A stretch of 51,791 nucleotides of DNA, taken from assembly GCA_019116485.1 (NCBI GenBank), contig DXBO01000098.1, positions 1 to 51,791 on the forward strand, read 5' to 3'. The position numbers and the translations under genes were made by a program. Positions 1 through 46,585 of this stretch are shown in pieces. Position 1 is the first letter of the stretch. The number at the start of each line of letters is the position of its first letter. The notes under the pieces are model-generated. The model saw only the letters and a list, made by a program, of their open reading frames with translations, was not told the origin of the DNA and ran no database searches. This stretch comes from Candidatus Gemmiger excrementavium. GTDB lineage: Bacteria > Bacillota > Clostridia > Oscillospirales > Ruminococcaceae.

Positions 1-278
1 ATTTTTCACAGGAAACAACAAATCTTTTTATTGGATAAAGCAACAGCTTATCAATCTTTTTGAAATCTCACTCCCAATACGCTATGATACAGCGCATACC
101 CGTCAGTCAGATTCCTTTGGAAACCGATGGCTGGGAACAATTTCCGAATCGTGGAGTTTTTCACCGCACAGCACCCCCTTGACCTGCCGCCCCGGAACGG
201 CGAGGAACAGGACGGCCCCGGCGAAATGTTCCGCTTTGTCAAAGTCATAGAATAGCCACGGCTGCATCTTCCAGACGG
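1..278. other. Region with no confident gene
   Basis: This stretch lies downstream of the STAS gene terminator and runs to the window edge. Short open frames exist on the minus strand (for example about 54 codons from an ATG at 267 down to 103), but none has a convincing ribosome site or a family I recognise. It could hold a decayed gene or the tail of a neighbour outside the window. Confidence 0.5.
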
Positions 279-304
279 AAAACGAACCGGCCCATGGGGC
301 CGGT
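279..304 (-). terminator. Terminator after the NRPS-PPTase-STAS operon
   Basis: An 8-bp GC-rich hairpin (ACCGGCCC at 286-293 pairing with GGGCCGGT at 297-304, 3-base loop) is followed on the minus strand by a short T-containing tract (TCGTTTTC). It sits 25 bp past the STAS stop codon, so it probably ends the biosynthetic operon. Confidence 0.7.
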
Positions 305-328
305 CCGTTGCATTTTATTTTGCGGTTT

Positions 329-625
329 TTATTCAATAACCAGAATGTCGGAAAAGCCGGTCATGGTGAACACTTCCATTACAGGCTCTCCTACATGGCG
401 CAGCAGCATCACGCCCTGGCGGTTCATCTTTTTCTGGGCCAGCAAAATGATGCGTAGCCCAGCCGAGGAAATATACTCCACCCCGGCAAAATCCAGCACC
501 AGCTTGGTGATGTCCGCCTCCAGGGCTTCCACTTGCTGCCCCAGTTCCGCAGCCGAAACGGCGTCCAGCCGCCCGGTCAGCGCCAGTGTCAGGGTGGCGC
601 CATCTCTTGTTTTGGTGATCGTCAT
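329..625 (-). CDS. STAS-domain anti-sigma factor antagonist
   Basis: This 98-residue protein is a single STAS domain of the SpoIIAA/RsbV type. Members bind an anti-sigma kinase and release a sigma factor or other target when unphosphorylated. The signature ISSAGLR at residues 52-58 contains Ser53/Ser54, the usual phospho-acceptor position, and follows the beta strand LVLDFAGVEY. An AAGGAG ribosome site precedes the ATG. The gene begins 19 bp after the PPTase stop codon, so it is very likely the last gene of the NRPS operon. No anti-sigma kinase, phosphatase or sigma factor is visible in the window, so its partner must be encoded elsewhere. It may regulate the biosynthetic operon, but it could also be a general-stress component that only shares the transcript. 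Confidence 0.88.
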   Translation of the reverse strand: MTITKTRDGATLTLALTGRLDAVSAAELGQQVEALEADITKLVLDFAGVEYISSAGLRIILLAQKKMNRQGVMLLRHVGEPVMEVFTMTGFSDILVIE

Positions 626-644
626 GGTAACACTCCTTTTTGTG

Positions 645-1307
645 TCAGCGTAAGGGCACAGTCTTTATGCCGGTAACCCGCGGCGTGCGGCCACACACGG
701 CACAGAGATACCCGTCTCCCGGATCGTATTCCTGAAAATGCCAGTCCCCGGGACAGACCTTCTGCTTTACCGTCACGGGCCGGACGGCGGGGTCCACCGA
801 AAAAGCGTCCAGGGGCAGCGCCATGCCCAGCCCGGTGGCTTTCATGAAACTTTCCTTGAGGGTCCACAGCCGGAAAAACATCCTCTGCTGTCCCTGCGGT
901 TCCGCTTCCGCCAGGATGCAGGCATACTCTGCGGGGGTGAAGAACCGGCGTGCAACCTCCAGTTCGATATCGGTTATCTGTTCCACATCGCAGCCTACCG
1001 GTTGGTCAGACACGGCACACAGCACCCGTTGCCCGGCGTGAGACAGGTTGAAATGCACATCGTTCCGCCCGGCCAGCATCGGTTTGCCCTGAGGGCCTCG
1101 CGTAAACGCGGGGTCCAGCACTCCGGCTTCGGCCAGGGCGTGGCGCAGCAGTGCGCCTGCCGCCAGCGAAAGCCGCTTGTCTTTGGGAAAACGGTAACCG
1201 TCCACTTTGGCCCGGCGGGCAGGTGTTGCCCGCAGATACAAGTCCCGGAACAGGGCGGCGTCGGCTAGGGGAGCGGCGTCGGCCAGGTAGAGACGGGTCT
1301 CAGCCAT
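645..1307 (-). CDS. Sfp-type 4'-phosphopantetheinyl transferase
   Basis: This 220-residue enzyme would transfer phosphopantetheine from coenzyme A to carrier-domain serines, turning apo-NRPS into holo-NRPS. The hallmarks are present: FNLSHAG at about 86-92, the Mg-binding GCDVE with Asp107 and Glu109, and WTLKESFMKATG at 148-159 with the catalytic region Lys151-Glu152. Its length fits the Sfp class rather than the short AcpS class. The ATG at 1307 overlaps the end of the NRPS gene by 8 bp, which implies translational coupling and argues against a longer upstream start that would run through NRPS coding sequence. The obvious substrates are the two carrier domains of the adjacent NRPS (Ser965 and Ser1989). 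It might also serve the stand-alone carrier protein at 37.4-37.6 kb. Confidence 0.95.
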   Translation of the reverse strand: MAETRLYLADAAPLADAALFRDLYLRATPARRAKVDGYRFPKDKRLSLAAGALLRHALAEAGVLDPAFTRGPQGKPMLAGRNDVHFNLSHAGQRVLCAVSDQPVGCDVEQITDIELEVARRFFTPAEYACILAEAEPQGQQRMFFRLWTLKESFMKATGLGMALPLDAFSVDPAVRPVTVKQKVCPGDWHFQEYDPGDGYLCAVCGRTPRVTGIKTVPLR

Positions 1308-4300
1308 CGGCTTTTTCCCCAAAGAAGCCCAGCGTAAACAGTGCCTGCACAGCCTGGCGGATGTAGTGCTCGCCGGTAAGCGGCCAGGCAAAGCCCAACC
1401 GGTAGAGCGCCTTGACGGTGAAGTGGTTATCACTGTCGATAAAGCAGCGGTTGGCCTTGCCGCCGTTCATGTAAGCAATCAGGGGCGAAATATCCATGTT
1501 GCGGGTCTCGTCGGCCAACAGGGCGTCAAAGGCGCGATGGAACTCTGCGTCCTCCACTACCTGCAGGGGGATGCCGTATTCCTGCATGACAGCTACCACG
1601 TTGGCCATATGCACATGGTGGCAGTTGTAGGCGTGGAACACTGTAAACTTGTCCGGCGTGGCGGCCAGCAGTACCACCGCCCGGGCCGTGCAGTCGATAG
1701 GGGAGAACTCGGCTTCGGCGTCCATGCTGCCCACCGGGAAGCAGCCGATGATGCCATAGGCGCGCAGCCGCTTCATGAAGCCGTTGGTGGTGTAGTTGAT
1801 CTGGAACTCGCCGTCGCTTTGCCGGCTCATCAGGTTGCCTACCCGGATGATCTTGCCCCGCAGCCCGCCGCGGATGGCCTCCAGCATGGCTTTTTCGGCA
1901 CGGAACTTGGTGTCGGCGTACTTGTTGTCCAGGGCCTGGCCCAGATAGAGCCGGTCTTCGGTCAGTTTTACCTCGGGGGGCACGCTGCCGTCCACCGATT
2001 CCCCGGCAATGCTCACGGTAGAAATCTGAATCAGTTGTTTGCCGCGCTGCCGGCACAGGGAAATGAGATTTTCTACCCCCTGTACGTTGATGCGGTCCAG
2101 CAGATCGTCGGCCACAAAATGCTTGACGCAGGCGGCGCAGTTGATGACGGTGTCGAAATCGCAGCCCGCCAGGGTGTCGCCCAGGTGGGGGTCAGTGATA
2201 TCGCCGTCCACCGGCAACAGGCGGGTGCCCACTTCGGCGTCAAAGGCGTCGTCGAAATAGTACATCAGCATCATTTTCAGGCGGGATTCCACCGACTGGC
2301 TGTGCCCTTTGCGCACCAGGCAGTAGACGGTCTCGCAGCCGGTGCGCAGAAGTTCGCGCACCACATGGATGCCCAGATACCCGGTAGCCCCGGTGACCAG
2401 CACCTTGCCCAGGGTGCCGGGGCGAATACCCTCCACAAAGGCGGCGGTGTTGTACTGCAGCACATCGTGATAGGCTTCTTCCGGCAGGGGGCTTTGCCCG
2501 GCGGGGGCAGCGGCGGGGGCGGGTTCAGCCTGCGCCTGCCGCCCGGCCAGGAAGGCCGCCAGTTTTTCCGGCGTGGTGTGGTCAAAAATGTCAGAGTACA
2601 CGGCGGGAATCTTTTCGGTCATGCAGCGCATGGCTACCTTGGAGGCAGACAGCGAGGTGCCGCCCAGGGCAAAGAAATCATCGTCGGCATAGACTTTGTC
2701 CACCCCCAGGGCCTTGGCGAAGATATCACACAGCTGGTGTTCCAGCGGGGTGACAGGTTCCCGCCCGGCGGGGCGGGCGGTCTGGGTGGCGGTGGGTTCG
2801 GGCAGAGCCCGCTTGTCGACCTTGCCGTTGGGGGTCAGGGGCAGGGCGTCCAGGTGCACGAACACCGCAGGCACCATGTAGGCGGCCAGCGTTTTGCCCA
2901 GGAAAGCCGCCAGCGCCGTGTGGTCCACCGGCTGGGCTGCCACATAGTAGCCGCACAGGTACTGGTCGTTGCCCTCGCCCCGCACAATGACCACACTGCG
3001 GGTGATGCCCTCGAACCGGTCCATGACGTTTTCGATCTCGTCCAGTTCCACACGCAGGCCCCGCAGCTTGATCTGGTTGTCGCTGCGGCCACAGTGCACG
3101 ATCTTGCCGTCCCGGTTCCAGTAGGCGATGTCGCCGCTGCGGTAGGCCTTGCGCCCCGCAAATGCGATGAATTTCTGCCGGGTCTGTTCGGGCAGGGCCA
3201 CATAGCCGCGGCCCACGCTGTCGCCCAGGATGGTCAGTTCGCCCCGGGCGTAGGGGGGCAGGGGCTGGTCGAACCAGTCCAGCACGCAGAGCTCGGTGTT
3301 GCCTGCCGGGCGGCCGATGGTCACCGTCTTGCCATCCAGTTCGTCGATGGTTACGGTGACGGTGGTCTCGGTGGGGCCGTAGCTGTTGTAAAGGCGCCCT
3401 GTAAAGCCCGCCTGGCGGATCTGGGCGTAGAGATTCTCGGGGAAGGGTTCCGCCCCGATGATGAGGGCCCGCAGCCTGGCCAGGGCCTGGCGACAGGGCG
3501 GGAACTCCAGCATGGTCTGCATGTAGGAGGGGGTGCACTTCATCATGTCCACGCCGGTGGCTTCCATCATCTGTGCCAGCAGAATGGGGTTGTGAATCTC
3601 CTCCTCGGTGGCCATGGCAACCGACTGGCCGTGGCACAGGGGCATCATTTCCTCGATGATGGAAACGTCAAAGGTGATGGCTGCCAACCCCAGGAACACC
3701 GTGGTGTTGTCCACATAGGCGTGGGCCAGCACGTTTTTGTCGTGGTATTGCAGCAGGTTCATCAGGTTGCGGTGCTCGATCATGACGCCCTTGGGGGTGC
3801 CGGTGGAGCCCGAGGTATAGATGCAGTAGGCCAGCGAGGCCGGGTCGATGGTCACGCCGGGGTTGGTGTCGTCACCGTTTTCGTACAGGTCTTCCAGCAG
3901 CAGCACCCGGCTGTCCAGGCTGTCAAAGAGTGCCCGGCGGCTTTCATACAGCGCCCGGGTGGTGATAACAAAGGGGGTTTTGGCATTCTGGAAGATGTAG
4001 GCGATGCGCTCGTCGGGGTAGTCCGGCGCGGTGGACAGGAAAGCGCCGCCCGATTTGAGGATGCCCTGGCGCACGGCGTAAACGTCCACCGTGCGGTCCA
4101 GATACAGCCCCACGATAACATCCGCCCCCACGCCGCCGTCGATCAGGCGGTGGGCGATGCGGTTGGCCCGGGCGTTGAGCTGGGCGAAGGTCAGGCTGAC
4201 CCCGCCCGCCGTGACGGCAGTCTTGTCGGGGTGCAGTGCTGCCTGGCGTTCCAGCAGGGCGGGCACCGGCAGGGGCTCCACGGTGCCGCGGGTGTCGTTC

Positions 4301-7300
4301 CAATGGGCCAGGTCTGCCGCGGCCCGGTCAGACAGCACTGATATCTTGCCCACGGTGGGCTGGGTCAGCAATTCCGACACTGCCTTGTCGCAGGCGTCCA
4401 GGAAACTGTCGATGTAATCTCCGCTGAAGCGGTCACTGCGGTACTCACAGAAATATCGGATACGGCCATCCTGCAAAAAGACGTTGAGATTCAGCGGCGC
4501 CTTGGCCTGATCCAATGCCAGGGAAATCTGGGTCACCGGCTCGCCGCACAGCGTATCGAAGGTGAAATCTTCGCCCTGGTAGGCGAACATCACGTCAGGT
4601 CTGACGCCGTAGGTACGGCTGATCTCGCCGAAGGAATACAGGTCGTTGGCCATGCTTTCCAGCATCTGGTCGCCCACGGCGGCGATGCAGGCGGCTACGG
4701 GGGTGTCTGCCGCCGCCCGGGACACATCGCATACCACCGGGTAGGTCTTGACCAGCATGGCCATGGCCCGGTGCAGCCGGGAATCACTGCGGCCATTGTA
4801 GATGGTGGTAAACACCGGCTTTTCCTTGCCGCAGAACTTGGAGAGTACCAGCCCGAACATGGCGGTAAAGAAGCCGTTCAGGCTCAGCTGGTTGGCTTCA
4901 CAGTAGTGTTTCACGTCCGCTGTTGTGGCGGCGCGGCCAAACACTTCCTTTTCGGCGCTGCGGGCCACCGGCTGTTCCCGCAGGTCCCCGGCGGGCAGGC
5001 AGTCGGGGTCACACCCCGCCAGCAGCCGGGCGTAGTGGTCTTTGGCTTTTTCGTAGTAGGCGCCGGCACGGCTGCGCTGTTCGGCCAGCACGGCCTCATA
5101 GCCGCTGTAAGTCTCGGCCTCCAGCGGCTGCCCGGCGTAGGCTTTGCCCACATCCTCAAAAAAGACCAGCAGCGAGGTTCCGTCTGCGATGATGTGGTGG
5201 AATTCCAGGAAGAGGTAGTTCTTGTCGGCCCGGAGGATGCGGATGCGGAACAGCCGGTCCCCCAGCAGGGCAAAGGGGCGAACCAGAGTATCCCGCACCG
5301 AATCCAGCGCGGCTACGTCCAGGACTTCGATGTCCTGCGCGCCAAAAGGCTCGTCGTCATTGCGGCGCTGACGAATCTCTCCGGCGTCGTCGGCAAACAG
5401 GTGGGTTTTGATATAGGGGTGTGCATTGACGGCGGCGGCCAGGGCCCGGGCCAGGCGGGAAAGGTCGATGGCAGGGCTCAGTTCCAGCAGCAGCGGAATG
5501 TTGTACACCGTGGTGCCCGGGTGGGCCACCGAGTCGATGAAGATGCCCTCCTGGTTTTTGGTCAGAGCATAGTCTGGCCGGGGGGCAAAGTCCTCGGTCT
5601 CGGCAGGGGCCTGGGTCAGGAAAGCGGCCAGTTTTTCCACCGTATCGTTTTCTTTCAGGTCCCGGGTCTGCACGGTGCGGTCAAAGGCTTTGGAGAGCAG
5701 TACGTTGAGGCGTACCGCCCCCACCGAGGTCAGCCCGGCCAGGTACAGGTTTGTATTTACGCCGAACCCGTCCGCTCCGATGACCTGGGCCACGATATCA
5801 AAAATCTTCTGCTCGGTATCGTTGCGGGGCGGGGTGCAGTCCTCAAAGGTGCGCTTGGGCACCGGCAGGGCGCGCTTGTTGACCTTCTGGTTCTGATTCA
5901 GGGGAATCTTGTCGATCTGCATGGTGACAGCGGGCACCATGTAGGGGGGCTTCTGGTCCAGGATAAACTGGTTCAACGCCTCCACCGATACCGGCTGGTC
6001 CGCCACCACATAGGCGGCCAGGAACTTGCCGCCTGCCGGGTCGTCAAAGGCGGCAACGGTGGCGTCCCGGATGCCGGGGAACCGGCGGATGACCTCCTCC
6101 ACCTCGGTCAGTTCGATGCGGAACCCGCGCACTTTGACCTGGGCGTCCCGGCGGCCCACAAACTGAATGCACCCGTTGTCCATGAACCGCACCACGTCGC
6201 CGGTGTGGTAGACCCGGTCATAGCCTTCGCGGTCACAGAAGGGGTTGGGAGTAAAAGCTTTGGCGGTCTGTTCGGGGCGGTTCAGGTAGCTGCGGCCCAC
6301 CTGCCAGCCGGAAATCCACAGTTCGCCCACCGCGCCCGGGGGCAGCAGACGGCCGTTTTTATCCACTACATAGAGTTTGATGTTGTCCAGCGCGGGACCG
6401 ATGGGCACGTCCTTGTACTTTTTGTCCACCCGCATCGTGGTGGTCAGAATGGTGGTCTCGGTAGGGCCGTAGGCGTTGTACAGCGCGTAGGGCGGCGGGT
6501 CCAGCGGCACCAGTTTTTCGCCGCCCACCGTCAGATGGCGCAGCGTGGTGGTGCCATCCATCAGGGCAAACTGGCGGCCCACCTGGGTGGTGATTAAACT
6601 GTGGGTAATGCCGTTGCGGTTATAGTAGTCCTGCAGTTCCAGCAGGTTGAGCCGGATGCCGTCATCGATGATATACACTGTGCCCCCGGCGGTCAGGGTG
6701 GGGTAGGTATCGAACATGTTGGCGTCGAACCCGTAGCTGGCATAGGCTGCCGCGCGGACGTTCTCGTCCATGTCGTAATAATGCCGGGCCCAGCTGCAGA
6801 AGGCGTTCAGGTTGCCGTGTTCCAGCATGACGCCTTTGGGCAGGCCGGTGGAACCGGAAGTGTACAGCATAATGAACAGGTCGTGGGGGGCGGGGGGCGG
6901 CAGAGGCTCGTCGCAGTCGGGCAGGGCGGGAATCTCGTCCACTTTCATGCGCGCGCCGGTGTATTCCTGCCCGATCAGCGGTTCCAGTTCGTCGGTGGTG
7001 ATCAACAGCCGGGCACCGGAATCCCGCAGCATCAGGTTCAGCCGTTCCGGCGGATAACTGGGGTCCATGGGCAGGTAGGCGCCGCCCGCTTTCAGGATGC
7101 CCAGGGCACAGATCACCATGTACTCGCACCGGGGGATCAGCACACCGGTCACGGTCTCCAGCCCGATACCCCGGCGGCGCAGATGCCGGGCCAGGATATC
7201 GGTGATGCGGTCCAGTTCCCCGTAGGTGAAACGCTTGTCCAGATACACCAGGGCCGGGTGGTCGGGCTGCCGCTGCACCTGTTCCCGGAACAGGTCAATG

Positions 7301-8619
7301 ACGGTGCGGCTGCGGTCAAAGGCCCGCTCGGTGGCGTTGAACCCGTCGATGCGGGCCGCAGCTTCTTCGTCGGCCAGTTCCACATCATCCACATAGTCCT
7401 TTACCAGCAATTCCTGGGCGGCCTTGCCGTAGGCGCGGGCCATGTACAGTGCAAAATCCCGGCTGAACATGTCGGCACGGTAGCCCACATGCAGCTGGTA
7501 GGTTCCGCCCCCCAGGTCGGACAACTCAAACAGCAGTGGGGTCTGTTCAATGTGGTTTTCGTCGTACAGGCGCTCCATCTGCATGTCGCCCACCGCCAGC
7601 AGCTGGTAGTCCAGAATATGCCCCTGGTAGGCAAAGTTGATGTCCGCCTTGACCTCGTAGTTCTCGGCGATCTCGGCAAAAGAGTACAGGTCGTGGCGGC
7701 GGCTTTCCATCAGGGTGTCGGCGCTCTTTTTCAAAAATTCGCGCACCGGTACATTGCCGGTAAAGTCTGCCACAAAGGGCAGGGTTTTTACCAGCATGGA
7801 GATCACGTTTTTGTTCTGTGCCAGCCGCCGCCCGTCGTAGACGGTGGCGATGACGCTTTCTTCTTTATAATTGTACTTGCCCACCAGAAAGCCCATCACG
7901 GCAGTGAAGTACCCGGTGGTGGATACCTGCAGCTCGCTGCGCAGCGCCTTGAAAGCGGCGGCGTCCAGCTGGAATTCGTAGTTCAGCCAGCCCTGGCGGG
8001 GCGTGTCCTCAAACACGTCGGGCACCGGCAGACAGTCGCCGTTGCGCCCCTGCAAAAGGGCATCGTAGAACCGGCGGGCTTGCTCATATTCGGGGGTGGA
8101 TTCCCGGGCAGCCTCGTCCCGGGCCACGTCCAGGCCGGTGTAGGTATCGGGTTCCAGGGGTTCGCCGTCGTAGGCCCGCTGCATATCCCGCACCAGAATC
8201 TGCAGACCGGTGCCGTCCACCAGGATGTGGTGGAATTCCTCAAACAGATACCGCTGCGTCGGCGTGATGTAGATCACGAACCGGCACAGCGCCCCGCCCA
8301 GCAGGGTAAAAGGCTGTACCAGATGCTCCCGGCGGGATGCAAATTCCTCGTCGCTCAGGTGTACCACCTCCACATGGCACAACCCGTCCACGATCTTCTG
8401 CATGACCTGCCCGTCCTCGGCCACAAACAGGGTGGTGTTCAGGGCGGGGTGGGCCGCCAGCGCTGCCTCAATGGCGGCTTTCAGGCGGTCAGTGTCCATG
8501 GCGGGACCCAGGGTGGTCAGAAACGGAATGTTGTAGTTGGTATAGGTCGGTTCCTTGGTGCACTCCAGATAAATCCCAAGCTGGGTCTTGCTCAGGACCG
8601 CTTGCCGGTGGTTGCTCAT
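1300..8619 (-). CDS. Two-module NRPS with terminal reductase (C-A-T-C-A-T-R)
   Basis: This 2439-residue cytoplasmic synthetase has a full domain order. The first condensation domain carries HHILVDG at 130-136. The first adenylation domain has LYTSGSTG near 585-592 and the A10 lysine at 912. The first carrier has Ser965 in an atypical AGLTSV context. The second condensation domain has HHIIADG at 1141-1147, the second adenylation domain YTSGSTG near 1601-1607 and Lys1933, and the second carrier LGGTSL with Ser1989. A thioester reductase from about 2070 has TGATGYLG (2076-2083), Thr2201, Tyr2234 and Lys2238. There is no thioesterase. The reductase should release a peptide aldehyde. The N-terminal, apparently active condensation domain suggests that a fatty acyl group starts the chain, as in known gut clostridial N-acyl dipeptide aldehydes. 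By-eye specificity codes are DAFLTGAILK (A1, probably a bulky hydrophobic residue) and DVIKIGSVTK (A2, unassigned). The product is inferred. Confidence 0.96.
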   Translation of the reverse strand: MSNHRQAVLSKTQLGIYLECTKEPTYTNYNIPFLTTLGPAMDTDRLKAAIEAALAAHPALNTTLFVAEDGQVMQKIVDGLCHVEVVHLSDEEFASRREHLVQPFTLLGGALCRFVIYITPTQRYLFEEFHHILVDGTGLQILVRDMQRAYDGEPLEPDTYTGLDVARDEAARESTPEYEQARRFYDALLQGRNGDCLPVPDVFEDTPRQGWLNYEFQLDAAAFKALRSELQVSTTGYFTAVMGFLVGKYNYKEESVIATVYDGRRLAQNKNVISMLVKTLPFVADFTGNVPVREFLKKSADTLMESRRHDLYSFAEIAENYEVKADINFAYQGHILDYQLLAVGDMQMERLYDENHIEQTPLLFELSDLGGGTYQLHVGYRADMFSRDFALYMARAYGKAAQELLVKDYVDDVELADEEAAARIDGFNATERAFDRSRTVIDLFREQVQRQPDHPALVYLDKRFTYGELDRITDILARHLRRRGIGLETVTGVLIPRCEYMVICALGILKAGGAYLPMDPSYPPERLNLMLRDSGARLLITTDELEPLIGQEYTGARMKVDEIPALPDCDEPLPPPAPHDLFIMLYTSGSTGLPKGVMLEHGNLNAFCSWARHYYDMDENVRAAAYASYGFDANMFDTYPTLTAGGTVYIIDDGIRLNLLELQDYYNRNGITHSLITTQVGRQFALMDGTTTLRHLTVGGEKLVPLDPPPYALYNAYGPTETTILTTTMRVDKKYKDVPIGPALDNIKLYVVDKNGRLLPPGAVGELWISGWQVGRSYLNRPEQTAKAFTPNPFCDREGYDRVYHTGDVVRFMDNGCIQFVGRRDAQVKVRGFRIELTEVEEVIRRFPGIRDATVAAFDDPAGGKFLAAYVVADQPVSVEALNQFILDQKPPYMVPAVTMQIDKIPLNQNQKVNKRALPVPKRTFEDCTPPRNDTEQKIFDIVAQVIGADGFGVNTNLYLAGLTSVGAVRLNVLLSKAFDRTVQTRDLKENDTVEKLAAFLTQAPAETEDFAPRPDYALTKNQEGIFIDSVAHPGTTVYNIPLLLELSPAIDLSRLARALAAAVNAHPYIKTHLFADDAGEIRQRRNDDEPFGAQDIEVLDVAALDSVRDTLVRPFALLGDRLFRIRILRADKNYLFLEFHHIIADGTSLLVFFEDVGKAYAGQPLEAETYSGYEAVLAEQRSRAGAYYEKAKDHYARLLAGCDPDCLPAGDLREQPVARSAEKEVFGRAATTADVKHYCEANQLSLNGFFTAMFGLVLSKFCGKEKPVFTTIYNGRSDSRLHRAMAMLVKTYPVVCDVSRAAADTPVAACIAAVGDQMLESMANDLYSFGEISRTYGVRPDVMFAYQGEDFTFDTLCGEPVTQISLALDQAKAPLNLNVFLQDGRIRYFCEYRSDRFSGDYIDSFLDACDKAVSELLTQPTVGKISVLSDRAAADLAHWNDTRGTVEPLPVPALLERQAALHPDKTAVTAGGVSLTFAQLNARANRIAHRLIDGGVGADVIVGLYLDRTVDVYAVRQGILKSGGAFLSTAPDYPDERIAYIFQNAKTPFVITTRALYESRRALFDSLDSRVLLLEDLYENGDDTNPGVTIDPASLAYCIYTSGSTGTPKGVMIEHRNLMNLLQYHDKNVLAHAYVDNTTVFLGLAAITFDVSIIEEMMPLCHGQSVAMATEEEIHNPILLAQMMEATGVDMMKCTPSYMQTMLEFPPCRQALARLRALIIGAEPFPENLYAQIRQAGFTGRLYNSYGPTETTVTVTIDELDGKTVTIGRPAGNTELCVLDWFDQPLPPYARGELTILGDSVGRGYVALPEQTRQKFIAFAGRKAYRSGDIAYWNRDGKIVHCGRSDNQIKLRGLRVELDEIENVMDRFEGITRSVVIVRGEGNDQYLCGYYVAAQPVDHTALAAFLGKTLAAYMVPAVFVHLDALPLTPNGKVDKRALPEPTATQTARPAGREPVTPLEHQLCDIFAKALGVDKVYADDDFFALGGTSLSASKVAMRCMTEKIPAVYSDIFDHTTPEKLAAFLAGRQAQAEPAPAAAPAGQSPLPEEAYHDVLQYNTAAFVEGIRPGTLGKVLVTGATGYLGIHVVRELLRTGCETVYCLVRKGHSQSVESRLKMMLMYYFDDAFDAEVGTRLLPVDGDITDPHLGDTLAGCDFDTVINCAACVKHFVADDLLDRINVQGVENLISLCRQRGKQLIQISTVSIAGESVDGSVPPEVKLTEDRLYLGQALDNKYADTKFRAEKAMLEAIRGGLRGKIIRVGNLMSRQSDGEFQINYTTNGFMKRLRAYGIIGCFPVGSMDAEAEFSPIDCTARAVVLLAATPDKFTVFHAYNCHHVHMANVVAVMQEYGIPLQVVEDAEFHRAFDALLADETRNMDISPLIAYMNGGKANRCFIDSDNHFTVKALYRLGFAWPLTGEHYIRQAVQALFTLGFFGEKADG

Positions 8620-8643
8620 TCAGTCGCCTTCCTTTCTGTTGTG

Positions 8644-8653
8644 ACAGGCCTGT
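8644..8653. repeat. Short palindrome in the NRPS 5' leader
   Basis: ACAGGCCTGT is a perfect 10-bp palindrome lying 25-34 bp upstream of the NRPS start codon and downstream of its promoter. It could be an operator half or chance in GC-rich DNA. No cognate regulator is visible. Confidence 0.3.
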
Positions 8654-8697
8654 ACACGGCCAATCGTTCTATGTGGCAATGAATAAATGTTTTGTAC

Positions 8698-8726
8698 AGT
8701 ATAACAGAAAATTATACACTTGTCAC
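8698..8726 (-). promoter_or_regulatory. Predicted NRPS operon promoter
   Basis: On the minus strand the -35 element is GTGACA (8721-8726), the spacer is 17 bp, and the -10 element is TATACT (8698-8703) preceded by an extended TG. It lies about 80 bp upstream of the NRPS ATG. The inverted repeat GTATAA-N7-TTATAC (8699-8717) overlaps the -10 box and spacer and is a candidate repressor site. Confidence 0.65.
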
Positions 8727-8799
8727 GAAAAAATGGGAACTTTCGTGTGGCTTCGTCAGAGGGGCGGGGGATATCTGCAGGGAACCACCCCCTTCCGCC

Positions 8800-8828: not shown

Positions 8829-8884
8829 ATTGAAAAGAAAAAAGAAGGAGCGCTTTGGCGCCCCTCCGCTACAGGAGAATGATT

Positions 8885-10054
8885 ATGCAGTATCGTCAGG
8901 ATAAGACCGGCACAAAACTGTCGATCTTGGGATATGGATGCCTGCGGTTCCCCAAGACCGGCGGGCGGATTGATGTGAACGCTGTCACCGAACAAATCGG
9001 GGAGGCGGTACGCCTGGGCGTCAATTACTTTGACACCGCCTATGTCTACGGCGGCAGCGAGGCCGCGTTGGGCGAAGCGCTGCGCCGCCTGGGGTGCCGG
9101 GACAAGGTATACCTTGCCGACAAGCTGCCCCAGTACCTGATCAAATCCCGGGCGGGCATGGAACGCTGTTTTCAGGAGCAGCTGTCCCGCCTGGGCACCG
9201 ACCATATCGATTTTTACCTGATGCACATGCTCACCGATCTGGCCGCCTGGCAAAAATTGTGCGGGCTGGGCATCCGGGAATGGATAGAGGAGAAAAAGGC
9301 GGCGGGGGCCATCGGCAGGATCGGCTTTTCCTTTCACGGCGATACCGCGGCTTTTTTGGAACTGCTGAACGCCTATGACTGGGATTTCTGCCAGATCCAG
9401 TACAACTATCTGGACGAGCATACCCAGGCCGGGCGCAAAGGGCTGGAAGCTGCCGCGGCCAGGGGAATTCCGGTCATCATCATGGAACCGCTGCGGGGCG
9501 GGCGGCTCATCACGGGCCTGTCTGACACTGCGCAAAAGCAGGTGGCCGCAAGTGGCCGCACCGCCGCCGGGTGGGGGCTGCGCTGGCTGTGGGATCAGCC
9601 GGGGGTCACGGTGGTGCTTTCCGGCATGAACAGCCTGGAAATGGTACGGGACAACGCCGCCCAGGCAGACACGGCTTGCCCCGGCTGCATGACGGCAGAG
9701 GAACACGCTTTTGTGGCGGCGCTGCGGGCCGACCTGCAGGCGTCCCTGCGGGTGGGATGTACCGGCTGCGGTTACTGCCAACCCTGCCCGGCGGGGGTGG
9801 ATATCCCCGGTGTGTTTGCCAGCTACAACCGCTTGGCCGGGGAAGGAAAAAACGCCAAAACCCAGTACCTGCTCACCACCGGGCTGCGGCGTAAAGGCAC
9901 CGGTGCCAGCCAGTGTGTGGGATGCGGCAAGTGCGAGCAGCACTGCCCCCAGCACCTGCCCATCCGCAGTCTGCTCAAAGAGGCCGCCAAAGAGCTGGAA
10001 GGCCCGCTGTACAAGGCGGCCCGGCTGGGGGTGAAAATCCTCAAACTCTGGTGA
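8885..10054 (+). CDS. Aldo/keto reductase with C-terminal 4Fe-4S ferredoxin domain
   Basis: This 389-residue protein joins an aldo/keto reductase barrel (residues 1 to about 270) to a ferredoxin-like tail. The barrel has the catalytic Asp50 in NYFDTAYVYGGSE and a candidate Lys80. The tail has two CxxCxxCxxxC clusters (Cys292/295/298/302 and Cys344/347/350/354), each expected to bind a 4Fe-4S centre. This architecture matches the COG1453 predicted oxidoreductases, which are common in anaerobes and poorly characterised. The ATG at 8885 was chosen because AGGAG lies 8 bp upstream; the ATG at 8879 is too close to it. The gene diverges from the NRPS operon. A role in reducing or detoxifying the NRPS aldehyde is conceivable, but nothing in the sequence proves it. 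Confidence 0.9.
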   Translation: MQYRQDKTGTKLSILGYGCLRFPKTGGRIDVNAVTEQIGEAVRLGVNYFDTAYVYGGSEAALGEALRRLGCRDKVYLADKLPQYLIKSRAGMERCFQEQLSRLGTDHIDFYLMHMLTDLAAWQKLCGLGIREWIEEKKAAGAIGRIGFSFHGDTAAFLELLNAYDWDFCQIQYNYLDEHTQAGRKGLEAAAARGIPVIIMEPLRGGRLITGLSDTAQKQVAASGRTAAGWGLRWLWDQPGVTVVLSGMNSLEMVRDNAAQADTACPGCMTAEEHAFVAALRADLQASLRVGCTGCGYCQPCPAGVDIPGVFASYNRLAGEGKNAKTQYLLTTGLRRKGTGASQCVGCGKCEQHCPQHLPIRSLLKEAAKELEGPLYKAARLGVKILKLW

Positions 10055-25727: not shown

Positions 25728-26918
25728 ATGCTGATCCGCAATGCAAAGGATTTTGATGGAAAGCCGGTGGAACTCTGGCTGCGCGACGGCAAAATTGCCG
25801 CCGTGGGCCTGGGTCTGCTGGTGCCGGAAGGGGAGGAGGTACTGGACGCCAAGGGCCGCACCGTGCTGCCTTCCTTTATAGATACCCACTGCCACTGGCG
25901 TACCCCCGGCTTTGAATATAAGGAGGACATCGCCACCGGCTCTGCCGCGGCGGCTGCCGGCGGGTATACCTATGTGAACCTGATGCCCAACACCAAGCCG
26001 GTCTGCTCTTCTGCCGAGATTGCCCACGCGGTGCAGGACGAGGCAAAACGCATCGGCCTGTGTGATGCCAACCAGACGGTATCCATCACGAAAGATTTCG
26101 ACGGCAAGACCATCGACCACCTGGCCGCCCTGCCCGACGACGTGAAATTTATCACCGAGGACGGCCACGGCGTCATGAACAACGCGGTCATGGCCCGGGT
26201 TTTTGCCCTTGCCACCGAGAAGGGCCTTACTGTTATGTCCCATGCGGAGGACAGCGATATCAGCCCTTGGGACTACCGCCTGGCTGAAAATATCGAGACG
26301 GTGCGCAACTGCCACCTGGCCGAATACTACGGTACCCGGCTGCACATGTGCCACGTCTCCACCAAAGAGGCCGTGGACGCCATCCGCATCAGCCGGATGC
26401 GCGGGGCACGGGTCAGCTGCGAAGTAACGCCGCACCACCTGTGGTTTGACGACAGCCGCCTGCAGTACAGGGTGAATCCGCCCATCCGCAAGGCCGACGA
26501 CGTGACCGCCCTGATCGAAGCCGTCAAGGACGGCACCATCACCTGCATCGGCACCGACCATGCGCCTCACACCGCCGAGGAAAAAGAAAAGGGTGCTGCC
26601 GGCATGGTGGGGCTGGAGACCGCTTTCGGCGTCTGCTACACCAAGCTCTGCCGGGAACAGCGTCTGCCGCTGGAGCTGCTCAGCTTCCTGATGAGTTCCG
26701 GCCCTGCCGCGGTGCTGGGCCTGGCAGACCACAAGGGGCTGCTGGCCCCCGGCTACGACGCCGACGTGGTGCTGGTGGACCTGGACCACATGTACCAGGT
26801 GGAGGCCGCCGAACTGCACAGCAAGAGCAAAAACTGCCCCTATGACGGGGCCTACCTGTACGGCAAGGTCGTCACCACCATCAAAGGTGGCGTCGTGACC
26901 TTTCAGATCGAGGAATGA
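25728..26918 (+). CDS. pyrC: Dihydroorotase
   Basis: This 396-residue enzyme closes carbamoyl-aspartate to dihydroorotate, the third step of pyrimidine synthesis. Zn ligands are visible in IDTHCHWRTPG (residues 47-57, the DxHxHxRxPG motif), MSHAEDS near 179 and MCHVST near 210, and the catalytic Asp lies in GTDHAPHT near 280. The size and motifs indicate a class I bacterial enzyme. AAGGAGG lies 7 bp before the ATG at 25728; the longer open frame includes the leader. It is the first gene after the attenuator; pyrF follows with almost no gap. No aspartate transcarbamylase gene (pyrB) is visible here. Confidence 0.96.
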   Translation: MLIRNAKDFDGKPVELWLRDGKIAAVGLGLLVPEGEEVLDAKGRTVLPSFIDTHCHWRTPGFEYKEDIATGSAAAAAGGYTYVNLMPNTKPVCSSAEIAHAVQDEAKRIGLCDANQTVSITKDFDGKTIDHLAALPDDVKFITEDGHGVMNNAVMARVFALATEKGLTVMSHAEDSDISPWDYRLAENIETVRNCHLAEYYGTRLHMCHVSTKEAVDAIRISRMRGARVSCEVTPHHLWFDDSRLQYRVNPPIRKADDVTALIEAVKDGTITCIGTDHAPHTAEEKEKGAAGMVGLETAFGVCYTKLCREQRLPLELLSFLMSSGPAAVLGLADHKGLLAPGYDADVVLVDLDHMYQVEAAELHSKSKNCPYDGAYLYGKVVTTIKGGVVTFQIEE

Positions 26919-26938
26919 CAAACAACGGGGGAATGAAT

Positions 26939-27802
26939 ATGCTGACCAACATGGACAAACTGTACGAAAGCGTAGCTGCCAACGGCCCGGTCTGCGTCGG
27001 CCTGGACACCGAGATCAGCTACCTGCCCACTACCGACACCGCCAAGACGGCGGGGGAGAACGTGGTGGAATTCAACCGCGCCCTGATCGCCGCCACCAAG
27101 GGTGTGGCGGGCTGCTACAAGGTGCAGATCGCCTACTATGAATCCCTGGGCATGGACGGTATGCGCGCCTACGCCGAGACCCTGAAAATGGCCCGGGCCA
27201 CCGGTCTGCCGGTCATTGCCGACATCAAGCGGGGGGACATCGCCAAAACCGCCGAGATGTACGCCAAGGCCCACTTCACCGGCGACTTCGAAGCCGACAT
27301 CGTTACGCTGGCCCCCTACATGGGCCTGGATTCCATCAGCCCCTATCTGCCTTACTGCAAGGACCAGGGCAAGGGCGTCTTTGTGCTGTGCCGCACCTCC
27401 AACCCCGGCGCCAAGGACTTTGAGTACCAGACCCTGGCCGACGGCCGCCATGTCTACGACCTGGTGGGCGACAGCCTGACCGAACTGGGCAAGGAGTACA
27501 TGGGGGAACACGGCTACTCCAGCATCGGCCTGGTCATTGGCGGTACCCATACCGAGGAAGCCACCGCTATCCGCGCCGCCTACAAGAACACCTTCTTCCT
27601 GATCCCGGGCTATGGTGCCCAGGGTGGCAAGGCGGCGGACATCGCCCAGTATCTCAGCCAGGGCAACGGCGGCGTGGTCAACTCCAGCCGCGGCATCCTG
27701 CTGGCCTACAAGAAGCAGCCCGGCGTTGCTTTCGATGAGGCGGCCTACAATGAATGTGTGCGTATGCGGGAGGATATTCAGGGTGAATGCAATAAGCTGT
27801 AA
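26939..27802 (+). CDS. pyrF: Orotidine 5'-phosphate decarboxylase (type 2)
   Basis: This 287-residue enzyme makes UMP from OMP, the last step of the pathway. The catalytic motif is DIKRGDIAKTA (residues 93-103) with Lys and Asp, and VGLDT near 17 opens the barrel. The length fits the longer type 2 family (TIGR02127) rather than the short E. coli type. GGGGGA lies about 7 bp before the chosen ATG at 26939; ATGs at 26915 (overlapping pyrC) and 26933 are less well placed. It ends near the pyrK start, whose coding region overlaps it by about 20 bp. Confidence 0.94.
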   Translation: MLTNMDKLYESVAANGPVCVGLDTEISYLPTTDTAKTAGENVVEFNRALIAATKGVAGCYKVQIAYYESLGMDGMRAYAETLKMARATGLPVIADIKRGDIAKTAEMYAKAHFTGDFEADIVTLAPYMGLDSISPYLPYCKDQGKGVFVLCRTSNPGAKDFEYQTLADGRHVYDLVGDSLTELGKEYMGEHGYSSIGLVIGGTHTEEATAIRAAYKNTFFLIPGYGAQGGKAADIAQYLSQGNGGVVNSSRGILLAYKKQPGVAFDEAAYNECVRMREDIQGECNKL

Positions 27803-28553
27803 GCTCCAGGTCCTGGCCCAGGACATCCTGGCCCCGGACATCCGCCGCCTGGTGGTACAGTGGCAGGACCCCAGCCACGAACCCCACGCCGGCCAGTTCT
27901 ATATGCTGCGGGCCTGGGCGCCCGACGCCACGCCGGTGCTGTCCCGCCCCATCAGTGTCCATGACTTTGACAACCAGACCGGTGCGCTGACCTTTCTCTA
28001 CCAGGTCAAAGGGGAGGGCACCCAGAAGCTGGCGGCCCTGCGCCCCGGCAACAGCCTTACCGTCACCGGCCCTTGCGGCAACGGGTTCGATGTGGCGGCC
28101 CTGACCCGGCAGTACCAGAAGATCGCCGTGGTGGGCGGCGGCATCGGTACCGCGCCGCTGCTGCTGCTCTGCAAGCAGCTGTGCCGTCTGGGCCTGCGCC
28201 CCGATCTCTATGTGGGCTTCCGGGATGAACCCTACGGTATGGAGGCCTTCGTGCCCTGGTGCCACACCGTCCACCTGGCCACCGATTCCGGCGCCCACGG
28301 TCACCATGGCCTGGTCACCGATTTGCTGGACACCGCCAACTATGATGTGGTGCTGACCTGCGGGCCCATGGTCATGATGCGCGGTGTAGCCAAACTGTGC
28401 GCCGCGGCGGGCAAGCCCTGCCTGGCCAGTCTGGAAAAGAAGATGGCCTGCGGTCTGGGCGCCTGCCTGGGCTGCACATGCCATACCAAGGTGGGGCCCC
28501 GTACCGTCTGCAAGGACGGCCCCGTATTTGATGCCCAGGAGGTGTTTGACTGA
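27783..28553 (+). CDS. pyrK: Dihydroorotate dehydrogenase electron-transfer subunit
   Basis: This 256-residue FAD and 2Fe-2S protein passes electrons from the PyrD FMN to NAD+. FAD binding is shown by RPISVHDF near 55 and NAD binding by VVGGGIGTAPLLLL near 117. The 2Fe-2S ligands lie in the C-terminal MACGLGACLGCTCHTK and VCKDGP segments. A GTG start at 27783 follows GGGAGG by 9 bp and gives the usual N-terminus. An ATG at 27750 in frame is an alternative. Either start overlaps the pyrF end, and pyrD starts in the TGATG overlap at its end, so the three are translationally coupled. Confidence 0.93.
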   Translation: MNAISCKLQVLAQDILAPDIRRLVVQWQDPSHEPHAGQFYMLRAWAPDATPVLSRPISVHDFDNQTGALTFLYQVKGEGTQKLAALRPGNSLTVTGPCGNGFDVAALTRQYQKIAVVGGGIGTAPLLLLCKQLCRLGLRPDLYVGFRDEPYGMEAFVPWCHTVHLATDSGAHGHHGLVTDLLDTANYDVVLTCGPMVMMRGVAKLCAAAGKPCLASLEKKMACGLGACLGCTCHTKVGPRTVCKDGPVFDAQEVFD

Positions 28554-29461
28554 TGGCGGACCTGCATGTGGACTTTCTCGGTAAGCGGCTGGCGGGCCCG
28601 GTCATCGCGGCCTCCGGTACTTTCGGCTTCGGCCCGGAATATGCCGACATTGAGGACTTGCGAGTCCTGGGCGGCATCTCCGGCAAGGGTCTGACTCTCA
28701 ACGGCCAGCCCGGCAACGAGGGGGAGCGCCTCTATGAGACCCCCTCCGGCCTGATGAACTCCATCGGCCTGCAGAACCCCGGTGTACAGCATTTTATCGA
28801 TAACGAACTGCCTGCCATGCGCCGCTGCGGCACCACCGTCTGGGCCAACCTGGGCGGGCACACCATTGAGGAAAATGTGCAGGGCGTGCAGATGCTCTGC
28901 GAAGCCGGCGTGGACTTTCTCGAACTGAACATCAGCTGCCCCAACGTCAAGCAGGGCGGTCTTGCTTTCGGCATCCGCGCCCAGGACGCCAGCGAGGTGG
29001 TCAGCGCCGTGCGCAAGGTCTGCACGGTGCCGCTGGTGGTCAAGCTGAGCCCCCAGGCCGAAAGCATCCCCGAGATGTGCAAGGCCGTGGAGGCCGCCGG
29101 GGCCGACGGCATCAGCCTGTGCAATACCTTCCAGGCCTGTGCCATTGACCTGGAAAAGCGCCGCCCGGTGTTCAACAACACCTTTGCGGGTCTCTCCGGC
29201 CCGGCGGTGCGGCCCATCGCCCTGCGCATGGTTTGGCAGGCGGTGGGGGCTGTCAGCATCCCCGTGGTGGGGCTGGGCGGTATCCTGACGGGCCGCGACG
29301 CCCTGGAGTTTATCATGGCCGGTGCTGCTGCCGTGCAGGTGGGTACGGCCAACTTCCTGGACCCGAAAGCCTGTGTGCGCATTACCGCCGAGATTGACCG
29401 CTGGATGGATGCCCACGGCGTGAAAACGCTGGAAGAAATCCGCGGCTGTGCTCGGGCCTGA
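28553..29461 (+). CDS. pyrD: Dihydroorotate dehydrogenase, catalytic subunit (class 1B)
   Basis: This 302-residue FMN enzyme oxidises dihydroorotate to orotate. Class 1B membership follows from the adjacent pyrK and from the motifs ASGTFGFGPEYAD (residues 17-29), NISCPNVKQGG near 125, and GLGGILTGRDALEFIMAGA near 240 that binds the FMN phosphate. The heterotetramer with PyrK uses NAD+ as acceptor, which suits an anaerobe. The ATG overlaps the pyrK stop by one base. It is the last gene before the internal pyrE promoter. Confidence 0.96.
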   Translation: MADLHVDFLGKRLAGPVIAASGTFGFGPEYADIEDLRVLGGISGKGLTLNGQPGNEGERLYETPSGLMNSIGLQNPGVQHFIDNELPAMRRCGTTVWANLGGHTIEENVQGVQMLCEAGVDFLELNISCPNVKQGGLAFGIRAQDASEVVSAVRKVCTVPLVVKLSPQAESIPEMCKAVEAAGADGISLCNTFQACAIDLEKRRPVFNNTFAGLSGPAVRPIALRMVWQAVGAVSIPVVGLGGILTGRDALEFIMAGAAAVQVGTANFLDPKACVRITAEIDRWMDAHGVKTLEEIRGCARA

Positions 29462-29483
29462 TGTGAATTTTTATGCATATAAC

Positions 29484-29512
29484 TTGCAATAATATACAGA
29501 TTGTGCTAGTAT
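29484..29512 (+). promoter_or_regulatory. Predicted internal promoter upstream of pyrE
   Basis: TTGCAA (29484-29489), a 17-bp spacer and TAGTAT (29507-29512) with an extended TG (29504-29505) lie in an 80-bp AT-rich gap, unusually AT-rich for this DNA. It would give pyrE-carA-carB their own transcription, outside the leader attenuator at 25.6 kb. Confidence 0.65.
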
Positions 29513-29542
29513 AAAATGAATGATATACAGGAGGAAAGTATC

Positions 29543-30139
29543 ATGGCGAGAGAAGCAATCGAAGTTTTGAAGGAATGCGAAGCCTTTCTGGAAGGGCACT
29601 TCCTGCTGTCGTCCGGCCGCCACTCCGGCGCCTACTGCCAGATGGCGTTCCTGCAGCAGTACCCCGACAAATGCGCCGAGGTCATGGCCCCGGTGGCGGA
29701 AAAACTGAAAGAACTGAACGTGGATGTGGTGGTAGGTCCCGCCATGGGCGGCATCGTCTATGCCTATGAATTGGGCCGCCAGCTGGGCAAGCGCGCCATC
29801 TTCACCGAGCGTGTGGACAATGTGATGACCCTCAAGCGGTTCAAGATCGAGCCGGGCCAGCGCTGCATCATTGCCGAGGATGTGGTTACCACCGGTGTGT
29901 CCAGCCTGGAGACCAAGCGCGTGATCGAGGAAGCGGGCGGCGTTTGCCTGGGCATCGCCTGCGTGGTGGACCGCACCCGCGCCGATGCTCCGTCCCCGAT
30001 CCCCATCGTGGCCAGCGCCCTCAAGCTGGACCTGCCCAACTACGCCCCGGAAGAGTGCCCCCTCTGCAAAGAGGGCAAGCTGCCGCTGGTGCACCTGGGC
30101 AGCCGCAAGATGAAAGAAGCGGCCAAACAGACTCTTTAA
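29543..30139 (+). CDS. pyrE: Orotate phosphoribosyltransferase
   Basis: This 198-residue enzyme joins orotate and PRPP to form OMP. The PRPP-binding signature is IIAEDVVTTGVSS near residues 109-121, where Asp-Val/Thr-Thr-Gly is conserved, and the substrate loop LLSSGRHSGAY lies near 20. Family length is about 200. AGGAGG sits 7 bp before the ATG at 29543, and a 9-codon upstream extension is not supported. The gene lies 80 bp after pyrD and 22 bp before carA. Confidence 0.95.
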   Translation: MAREAIEVLKECEAFLEGHFLLSSGRHSGAYCQMAFLQQYPDKCAEVMAPVAEKLKELNVDVVVGPAMGGIVYAYELGRQLGKRAIFTERVDNVMTLKRFKIEPGQRCIIAEDVVTTGVSSLETKRVIEEAGGVCLGIACVVDRTRADAPSPIPIVASALKLDLPNYAPEECPLCKEGKLPLVHLGSRKMKEAAKQTL

Positions 30140-30161
30140 AAAGTACAGGGAGTTTTCAAGT

Positions 30162-34200: not shown

Positions 34201-34521
34201 ACACCGGAAACTGCACGCTTCCTCAACAGCCAGATGGTGCCCTGCAGTGTGGTGCGCCAGATGAGCGGTGCCCGGCCCAACGTCATTGACCTGCTGGAAA
34301 GCGGCCTGATAGATTATATCATCTCCACCAGCCCCCATGGCCGCGATCCTAAGCGGGATTCCGTCAAGTTCCGCCGCAAGGCCACCGAGCTGTCCATTCC
34401 CTGCATCACAGCCATGGACACCGCCCGCGTGCTGGTGGATGCCCTGCGGGGCGACCACGATATCAGCCAGATGGAACTGGTGGATGTGGCCCGGCTGCAC
34501 CGGGATGCCAAACAGGGCTGA
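31285..34521 (+). CDS. carB: Carbamoyl-phosphate synthase, large subunit
   Basis: This 1078-residue enzyme makes carbamoyl phosphate from bicarbonate, ammonia and two ATP. Two homologous ATP-grasp halves are visible, beginning [21 protein letters not shown] (near 10, first half) and [19 protein letters not shown] (near 554, second half). The C-terminal MGS-like domain (about 935-1078) includes the segment [15 protein letters not shown] and is the usual site of UMP and IMP control. The size is typical of bacterial CarB. The preceding carA overlap and following terminator show it is the last gene of the pyr cluster. Confidence 0.97.
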   Translation: [1078 protein letters not shown]

Positions 34522-46486: not shown

Positions 46487-46525
46487 TAGGGAAAGAGCTG
46501 CCAGGCAAGATTTTTGTCCGGTTGG

Positions 46526-46554
46526 TTTACTTTTGCGGGGCAAAGCGGTATAAT
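46526..46554 (+). promoter_or_regulatory. Predicted promoter of the yfmF-yfmH-lgt-folD operon
   Basis: TTTACT (46526-46531), a 17-bp spacer and TATAAT (46549-46554) lie 31 bp upstream of the yfmF start codon. Confidence 0.7.
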
Positions 46555-46585
46555 ACACCTATCTATTGTTGAAAGGACTACGGAT

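What the first reader, a model, noticed from the sequence alone, without database searches (positions are those of the whole stretch)
300..8730. NRPS predicted to make an N-acylated dipeptide aldehyde
The 2439-residue synthetase has C-A-T-C-A-T-R order with intact HHxxxDG motifs in both condensation domains and an intact Thr/Tyr/Lys reductase triad, but no thioesterase. An active N-terminal condensation domain with no partner upstream suggests that an acyl-CoA or acyl-ACP starts the chain. Reductive release then gives an aldehyde that cannot cyclise through its N-terminus. Known gut clostridial NRPSs of this kind make protease-inhibiting aldehydes. The compound from this cluster is not known to me.
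Basis: partly seen in the sequence, partly recalled or inferred. Interest (0 to 1): 0.8.

Follow-up and report, generated by a model that had tools for sequence, protein, structure and literature searches.

The report
Gut-type acyl-dipeptide aldehyde synthetase
A bacterium related to animal gut species carries a large enzyme that probably joins a fatty or other acid to two amino acids and releases the product as a reactive aldehyde, a new member of a known family in which tested products block protein-cutting enzymes.

Summary
On the minus strand, 1300-8619 encodes a 2439-aa NRPS, C-A-T-C-A-T-R, with both HHxxxDG motifs, both carrier serines and the reductase Thr/Tyr/Lys intact, and no thioesterase. 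A PPTase gene overlaps its end and a STAS gene follows. These are the only two condensation domains found in the assembly.
Relatives are common in gut and rumen Clostridia. Of 57 with a complete start, 18 have an intact first C domain (all with HHxxxDG), 13 a first C domain without its catalytic half, 23 a preceding A-T (Asp235 absent in 21, so probably loading a non-amino acid), and 3 are plain A-T-C-A-T-R. The window is of the first kind, so an N-acylated dipeptide aldehyde is the best reading (about 0.75).
Tree tests reject C1 both as an ordinary LCL domain and as a fengycin-type starter. It lies in a family-specific lineage that also holds peptide-bond C domains, so phylogeny does not prove acyl donation. 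The donor is unknown.
This is a new member of a known kind (N-octanoyl-Met-Phe-H, ruminopeptin). A2 has a lysine in its pocket, so an acidic or amide last residue is possible.

The parts
1300..8619 (-). NRPS gene, 2439 aa, C-A-T-C-A-T-R
7330..8619 (-). C1 condensation domain (residues about 1-430) with HHILVDG at residue 130
   Evidence: tree and AU tests
5866..7302 (-). A1 adenylation domain, pocket letters DAFLTGAIL plus Lys912 (Asp235 equivalent at residue 632)
5617..5811 (-). T1 carrier domain, Ser965
4309..5574 (-). C2 condensation domain with HHIIADG at residue 1141
2800..4254 (-). A2 adenylation domain, pocket letters DVIKIGSVT plus Lys1933 (Lys at the 278 position is residue 1694)
2560..2730 (-). 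T2 carrier domain, approximate limits, Ser1989
1303..2499 (-). Terminal reductase R domain: GATGYLG at 2077, Thr2201/Tyr2234/Lys2238
645..1307 (-). Sfp/HetI-type phosphopantetheinyl transferase; its first 8 bases overlap the end of the NRPS gene
   Evidence: family matches on 645-1319
329..625 (-). STAS domain protein (anti-sigma factor antagonist type)
255..318 (-). Stable hairpin after the STAS gene with a short T run, possible operon terminator
   Evidence: z -2.77; 4 of 200 shuffles fold as well; not listed by the pattern scan
8698..8726 (-). Promoter-like hexamers GTGACA-17-TATACT upstream of the NRPS start
   Evidence: 6 sites in 9 kb, 2.0 expected; weak

Best explanation
An operon of NRPS, its activating PPTase and a STAS regulator makes an N-acylated dipeptide aldehyde. 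The PPTase arms both carrier domains (inferred). C1 takes an acyl group from acyl-CoA or acyl-ACP, with no upstream NRPS module, and joins it to the amino acid loaded by A1, probably a hydrophobic one (inferred). C2 joins this to the residue loaded by A2. The R domain releases the chain by a two-electron reduction as an aldehyde. Because the amino end is blocked by the acyl group, the aldehyde cannot close to a dihydropyrazinone and stays an electrophile able to bind the active-site Ser, Thr or Cys of proteases. Shown by sequence: domain order, intact motifs, gene layout, no other C domain found in the assembly, kinship with a large clostridial NRPS family. Inferred: acyl donor, residue identities, aldehyde rather than alcohol, protease inhibition.
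For: Architecture and motifs. Only two C domains found in the assembly. Of 57 relatives with a complete 5' end and an R domain (from 80 loci; near-copies counted separately), 31 begin with a C domain: all 18 with at least 380 aa before A1 have HHxxxDG and all 13 with fewer lack it, so a first C domain is either whole with its motif or has lost that half. In 21 of 23 relatives that start with an extra A-T, the first A lacks the Asp235 that binds the amino group, suggesting in-cis loading of a non-amino acid before C1 (role of D235: PMC11253843 passages). Published products: N-octanoyl-Met-Phe-H from BGC0001686, and ruminopeptin as an N-acylated Leu-Glu aldehyde (PMC8518294 passages); ruminopeptin from R. 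bromii (PMC12327764 passages); 47 gut NRPS clusters, a subset shown to be peptide aldehydes inhibiting cathepsins (PMC12282076 passages). C1 is rejected as an ordinary LCL domain. In wider trees a few other N-terminal C domains of R-ending NRPSs (L130, L141; also L071) do join the fengycin-type starter.
Against: C1 itself does not join the one known starter domain used (fengycin-type PpsA C1, AU p 0.006); its lineage also holds peptide-bond C domains, and its next neighbours are such domains at 91/90. The chosen N-terminal and acyl-accepting C domains of the family are not one clade (AU p 0.0345). HHxxxDG is kept in peptide-bond C domains too (81 of 81 in R-ending proteins, against 27 of 28 N-terminal and 24 of 26 after an Asp235-less A), so the motif does not tell the donor. 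The Asp235 reading is imperfect: McyG lacks it although it activates Phe, and in my control the first A-like domain of bacillomycin BamA, recalled as a fatty acyl ligase, printed a D. No acyl ligase was identified in the operon. The MATE-HATPase gene common in the family was not found here. No chemistry was done.
Confidence: 0.75

Rival explanations
1. C1 is idle or optional. The chain starts with the amino acid on T1, and the free-amine dipeptide aldehyde closes to a dihydropyrazinone and oxidises to a pyrazinone, as in the aureusimine type.
For: Plain A-T-C-A-T-R members (3 of 57) and members with half a C1 (13 of 57) exist among the relatives. The best NCBIfam hit is the aureusimine NRPS model, though far under its cut-off (1020.8 against 2500 bits).
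Against: C1 is full length, and HHxxxDG is kept in all four members of its supported clade (WIN, L075, L032, L046), whereas the 13 relatives with a shortened first C domain all lack the motif.
Confidence: 0.12
2. The released product is an alcohol: the R domain performs a four-electron reduction, or a cellular aldo/keto reductase such as the divergently transcribed gene at 8873-10054 reduces the aldehyde.
For: An aldo/keto reductase gene sits next to the NRPS. R domains can do two- or four-electron release (PMC12403116 passage).
Against: The aldo/keto reductase is present at 79-89% identity in 10 of 34 other same-genus genomes, in which no close NRPS was found, so it is probably unrelated. The published relatives are described as aldehydes.
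Confidence: 0.08
3. C1 receives an aminoacyl group from a free-standing A-T protein in trans, giving a tripeptide aldehyde.
For: Two relatives (L146, L151) start with an A-T that keeps Asp235, so amino acid loading before C1 probably occurs among the relatives.
Against: No partner gene lies in the operon and no further C domain was found in the assembly. The only other hit of the NRPS in the assembly is a 31% A-domain match on another contig.
Confidence: 0.05

Closest known systems
Gut clostridial peptide aldehyde NRPS family, incl. BGC0001686 (N-octanoyl-Met-Phe-H)
   Same: C-A-T-C-A-T-R (architecture of its N-acyl members recalled, not seen in a call), reductive release, clostridial
   Different: No direct sequence comparison was possible: no characterised member was identified among the loci fetched and Guo 2017 is not held
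Ruminopeptin (rup) pathway of Ruminococcus bromii
   Same: Predicted N-acylated dipeptide aldehyde from a gut bacterium; possibly also an acidic last residue
   Different: Different organism; rup sequence not compared; product residues unknown here
L075, Oscillospiraceae bacterium SIG622 locus (uncharacterised; closest relative found)
   Same: Colinear NRPS, R 72%, C1 58%, C2 60% identity, identical A2 letters and A1 letters that differ at one place, PPTase next to it
   Different: A transporter-like partial gene upstream (MatE match under Pfam's cut-off, no HATPase match) and a different gene after the PPTase; locus GC 44% against 62% for the window NRPS
Aureusimine AusA (A-T-C-A-T-R)
   Same: A-T-C-A-T-R part and reductive release
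   Different: Window enzyme has an additional intact N-terminal C domain; NCBIfam score far under the cut-off

Membership tests
Gut clostridial peptide aldehyde NRPS family | Two amino acid A-T modules and terminal reductase, no thioesterase | tested here: met
   Asp235 equivalents present in A1 and A2
Gut clostridial peptide aldehyde NRPS family | Intact reductase catalytic residues | tested here: met
Gut clostridial peptide aldehyde NRPS family | Close kin in gut and rumen Clostridia | tested here: met
   (best 80 kept): many titles name Lachnospiraceae, Ruminococcus, Oscillospiraceae and other Clostridia, often from gut or rumen. Also isolates not of the gut (Acetobacterium, Syntrophomonas, Pectinatus), Selenomonadaceae, and titles naming archaea, spirochaetes, Bacteroidales and Bacilli. 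The window's own habitat is inferred only.
Gut clostridial peptide aldehyde NRPS family | Sequence similarity to a chemically characterised member | not testable with these tools
   Guo 2017 not held; no characterised member of the family was identified among the loci fetched
Gut clostridial peptide aldehyde NRPS family | Aldehyde product | not testable with these tools
   needs chemistry
Classical starter (Cs) condensation domain | Groups with a known starter domain (fengycin-type PpsA C1, identified by synteny) | tested here: not met
   AU p 0.006; one reference starter plus one N-terminal relative only; groups named after earlier trees were seen
Ordinary LCL condensation domain | Groups with Bacillus, Mesobacillus and Paenibacillus LCL-type reference domains | tested here: not met
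   AU p 2.5e-5; the LCL label of the references is inferred
Family-specific N-terminal C domains | One clade with other N-terminal C domains of the family | tested here: inconclusive
   not rejected with six of them, AU p 0.47, but not recovered in the 45-row tree
Aureusimine AusA | NCBIfam NF047350 cut-off | tested here: not met
   1020.8 of 2500 bits

The most novel reading that the evidence does not exclude
The enzyme makes an N-acyl dipeptide aldehyde ending in an acidic or amide residue (Asp, Glu or Asn type), because A2 carries a lysine at pocket position 278, as in the two bacillomycin D A domains read here as DLTKIGEVG (their Asn specificity is recalled). Such an aspartal or glutamal would aim at Glu/Asp-specific proteases (bacterial GluC type or host caspase and granzyme B type) rather than cathepsins. 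Its C1 would represent an acyl-accepting C lineage that arose within a clostridial C-domain family, independently of fengycin-type starter domains.
Probability: 0.25. Interest if true: 0.55.

Novelty: new member of a known kind. Interest (0 to 1): 0.38.

Why it matters
It adds an uncharacterised, testable candidate producer to a family with protease-inhibiting products. The comparison of start types among its relatives suggests a simple rule for predicting from sequence which members should make stable N-acyl aldehydes and which should make pyrazinones.

Tried and rejected
Rejected: C1 as an ordinary LCL domain or as a fengycin-type starter domain. A dedicated acyl ligase: the partial gene after the PPTase in L075 has no Pfam match and no relative in this assembly. 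A MATE-HATPase gene in this assembly: 10 MATE matches at 19-25% identity, none reaching the fused part; the best one, read, has its extra length in front of the transporter part and no visible kinase part (by eye). An empty site in same-genus genomes: of nine loci scripted, six gave the reductase motif and their upstream ORFs are not all alike, so none could be defined. Recent transfer by base composition: NRPS GC 62.5% against 60.9% for window 8873 to the end, while three relatives' loci were 44-51%.

Results against the reading: C1 domains of L053, L103 and L133 fall outside the family clade, near reference domains. In one search, 24 of 199 C domains had no label and were left out, as were near-copies (175 of 199 kept) and most proteins not ending in R. 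One search left out 22 further loci (near-copies and long branches) and all but 13 references. The 45-row set was picked by hand and leaves out L053, L103, L133, L141 and L153 among others. The groups tested were named after earlier trees were seen, so the p-values are optimistic. The pocket letters printed for L077-L080 look misplaced; absence of the FD motif was seen by eye only in L047, whose contig length equals that of L078. The control with bacillomycin printed eight A-like domains: seven fit recalled residues, the eighth (BamA's first, recalled as a fatty acyl ligase) printed a leading D, so a D does not exclude acid loading. The 57 loci include near-copies (for example L116, L117, L120).

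Left out: a starter domain from a genotoxin cluster was thought of as a yardstick and not fetched; a fengycin-type domain was used. Structure prediction was not run because it would not settle the donor.
Full report
Observation. The ORF at 1300-8619 on the minus strand encodes 2439 residues. Pfam shows C-A-T-C-A-T-R without thioesterase. Catalytic motifs of both C domains, both carriers and the reductase are intact, and the reductase Thr, Tyr and Lys are invariant in ten aligned domains, the window's included. The end of the NRPS gene overlaps the start of a PPTase gene (645-1307) by 8 bases, followed by a STAS gene (329-625) and a stable hairpin. The pattern scan did not list that hairpin as a terminator; it lists a promoter-like site upstream of the NRPS.

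Genome context. The window is a whole contig of 51,791 bases in an assembly of 2.5 Mb and 94% completeness. A Pfam search for condensation domains finds only the two in this protein. In 34 other same-genus genomes the best match to the NRPS had E 5.9e-114 at 31% identity, and no listed piece exceeded 36%, so no close copy was found and the gene looks accessory. In 394 genomes of the order, 13 including the window's own had a match at E 1e-150 or better; in 391 of the class, 27 including its own. The best full-length relatives in those searches are 47% identical. One of them, L032, from the GTDB family of the window's genome, sits on a contig of the same length, 77,283 bases, as L152, titled Oscillospiraceae bacterium RGIG8728 from water deer colon, so the window's organism is probably a related gut bacterium. 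This is inference.

Family. The closest, L075, has 72% identity in R. Domain orders were assigned with profiles built here. Of the 80 loci, 57 have a complete 5' end and end in R; 18 run off the contig at the 5' end, 4 have no multi-domain ORF and 1 does not end in R. The 57, near-copies included, divide into: intact first C domain 18 (HHxxxDG in 18 of 18; one of them, L133, has three modules, and L130 has two C domains in a row); first C domain lacking its N-terminal half 13 (HHxxxDG in 0 of 13; sequences of eight; of four tested with Pfam, three match only the last part of the Condensation model and L106 has no match); A-T first with three A domains 23, of which 21 lack Asp235 in the first A and 2 keep it (L146, L151); and A-T-C-A-T-R 3. 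[quoted passage not shown] So 39 of 57 relatives look built to acylate the first residue and 16 look built not to. The window enzyme is of the first kind.

Is C1 a starter domain? Reference C domains came from named Bacillus, Mesobacillus and Paenibacillus plasmid records, including one fengycin-type PpsA C1 identified by neighbouring genes and by a Glu-type A domain close by. The careful 45-row tree puts the 35 chosen family C domains in one branch (100/99) apart from LCL, DCL and PpsA-type references. The labels LCL and DCL for references are inferred from position and clustering. The window C1 forms a branch with L075, L032 and L046 (100/100), all N-terminal. AU tests reject joining this branch to LCL references (p 2.5e-5) or to PpsA-type starters (p 0.006), do not reject joining it to six other N-terminal family C domains (p 0.47), and mildly reject one clade of all chosen N-terminal and acyl-accepting domains (p 0.0345). 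The next branch outward joins it to 12 peptide-bond C domains at 91/90. In wider trees the C1 domains of L053, L103 and L133 fall outside the family clade near references, and those of L130 and L141 join the PpsA starter. In R-ending proteins HHxxxDG is kept in 27 of 28 N-terminal, 24 of 26 acyl-accepting and 81 of 81 peptide-bond C domains, and in 17 of 17 unlabelled ones, so the motif alone does not tell donors apart.

Substrates. Pocket letters are DAFLTGAIL for A1 and DVIKIGSVT for A2 (positions mapped by hand onto the GrsA positions listed). As a control, the same procedure on the bacillomycin D synthetase record printed eight A-like domains: seven fit the recalled residues Asn-Tyr-Asn-Pro-Glu-Ser-Thr by a recalled code table, and the eighth, BamA's first, recalled as a fatty acyl ligase, printed a leading D, which warns that a D does not exclude acid loading. 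A1 is probably hydrophobic. A2 has Lys at 278, as in the two Asn-type letters DLTKIGEVG of that control, so an acidic or amide residue is possible but uncertain. Among the A domains printed only L075 has the same A2 letters; L124, L126 and L149 have DVIKIGSVS in their last A domain.

Neighbourhood. In 75 of the 80 loci (those whose first ORF ends in R), a same-strand MATE transporter whose match reaches into a fused C-terminal part lies within 3 kb in 47, a STAS gene within 6 kb in 39, both in 26, and a PPTase within 6 kb in 25; contig ends lower these counts. Pfam finds HATPase_c_2 in the C-terminal part of 4 of 4 such transporters tested, one of them only just over the cut-off. The window has PPTase and STAS but no such fusion; the assembly has only distant MATE matches and HATPase_c_2 matches in other proteins, which I did not look into. 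Two literature searches (12 of 204 papers listed, 10 of 10) gave no listing that joined these features with peptide aldehyde NRPSs; the library lacks most subscription papers.

Known work. PMC8518294 (passages) describes N-octanoyl-Met-Phe-H from BGC0001686 expressed in E. coli, with in vitro activity on cathepsins and proteasomes, and ruminopeptin as an N-acylated Leu-Glu aldehyde. PMC12327764 (passages) describes ruminopeptin from R. bromii. PMC12282076 (passages) mentions 47 gut NRPS clusters, a subset shown to be peptide aldehydes. Guo 2017 itself was not held. The compound of this cluster is not identified by anything seen here.

Verdict. New member of a known kind; N-acyl dipeptide aldehyde at about 0.75; residues and acyl group open.

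Noticed in passing
L100, L105, L113, L116, L125, L132, L137 and others, N-termini: 13 of 57 relatives begin with a condensation domain that has lost its N-terminal half including HHxxxDG but kept the rest ahead of A1; a possible relic or platform.
   Followed up: partly
L082:11194-12954, L105:11165-12937, L126:361-2139, L152:11165-12904 and others: MATE transporter fused to a HATPase_c_2 (anti-sigma kinase type) domain beside the NRPS, often with a STAS gene; suggests a partner-switching control linked to export.
   Followed up: partly
window 329-625 (-): STAS gene behind the NRPS and PPTase without the MATE-HATPase partner seen in relatives.
   Followed up: partly
L093, L094, L097, L098, L110: Loci titled as archaeal MAGs carry NRPSs of this family; in L097 and L110 the motif of the first C domain reads SHIMxDG. 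Contamination or transfer not separated.
   Followed up: no
window 8873-10054 (+): Aldo/keto reductase with a 4Fe-4S tail, divergent from the NRPS; matches at E 1e-60 or better in 28 of 35 genomes of the genus, its own included.
   Followed up: partly
L075:8766-9548: Partial ORF after the PPTase looks by eye like a CapK/phenylacetate-CoA ligase type protein, a possible acyl supplier; no Pfam match.
   Followed up: partly
L002 (G000:C127:91412-92968), L008-L011, L017, L023, L031: In same-genus genomes, matches running from the A1 to the T1 region of the NRPS cross one TGA each; perhaps an A-domain gene and a neighbouring gene in the same frame.
   Followed up: no
window 26915-34521 (+): Pyrimidine genes: OMP decarboxylase, dihydroorotate dehydrogenase and its iron-sulfur subunit, carbamoyl-phosphate synthase small and large chains.
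   Followed up: no
window 46514-49175 (+): Two adjacent M16-type peptidase genes.
   Followed up: no
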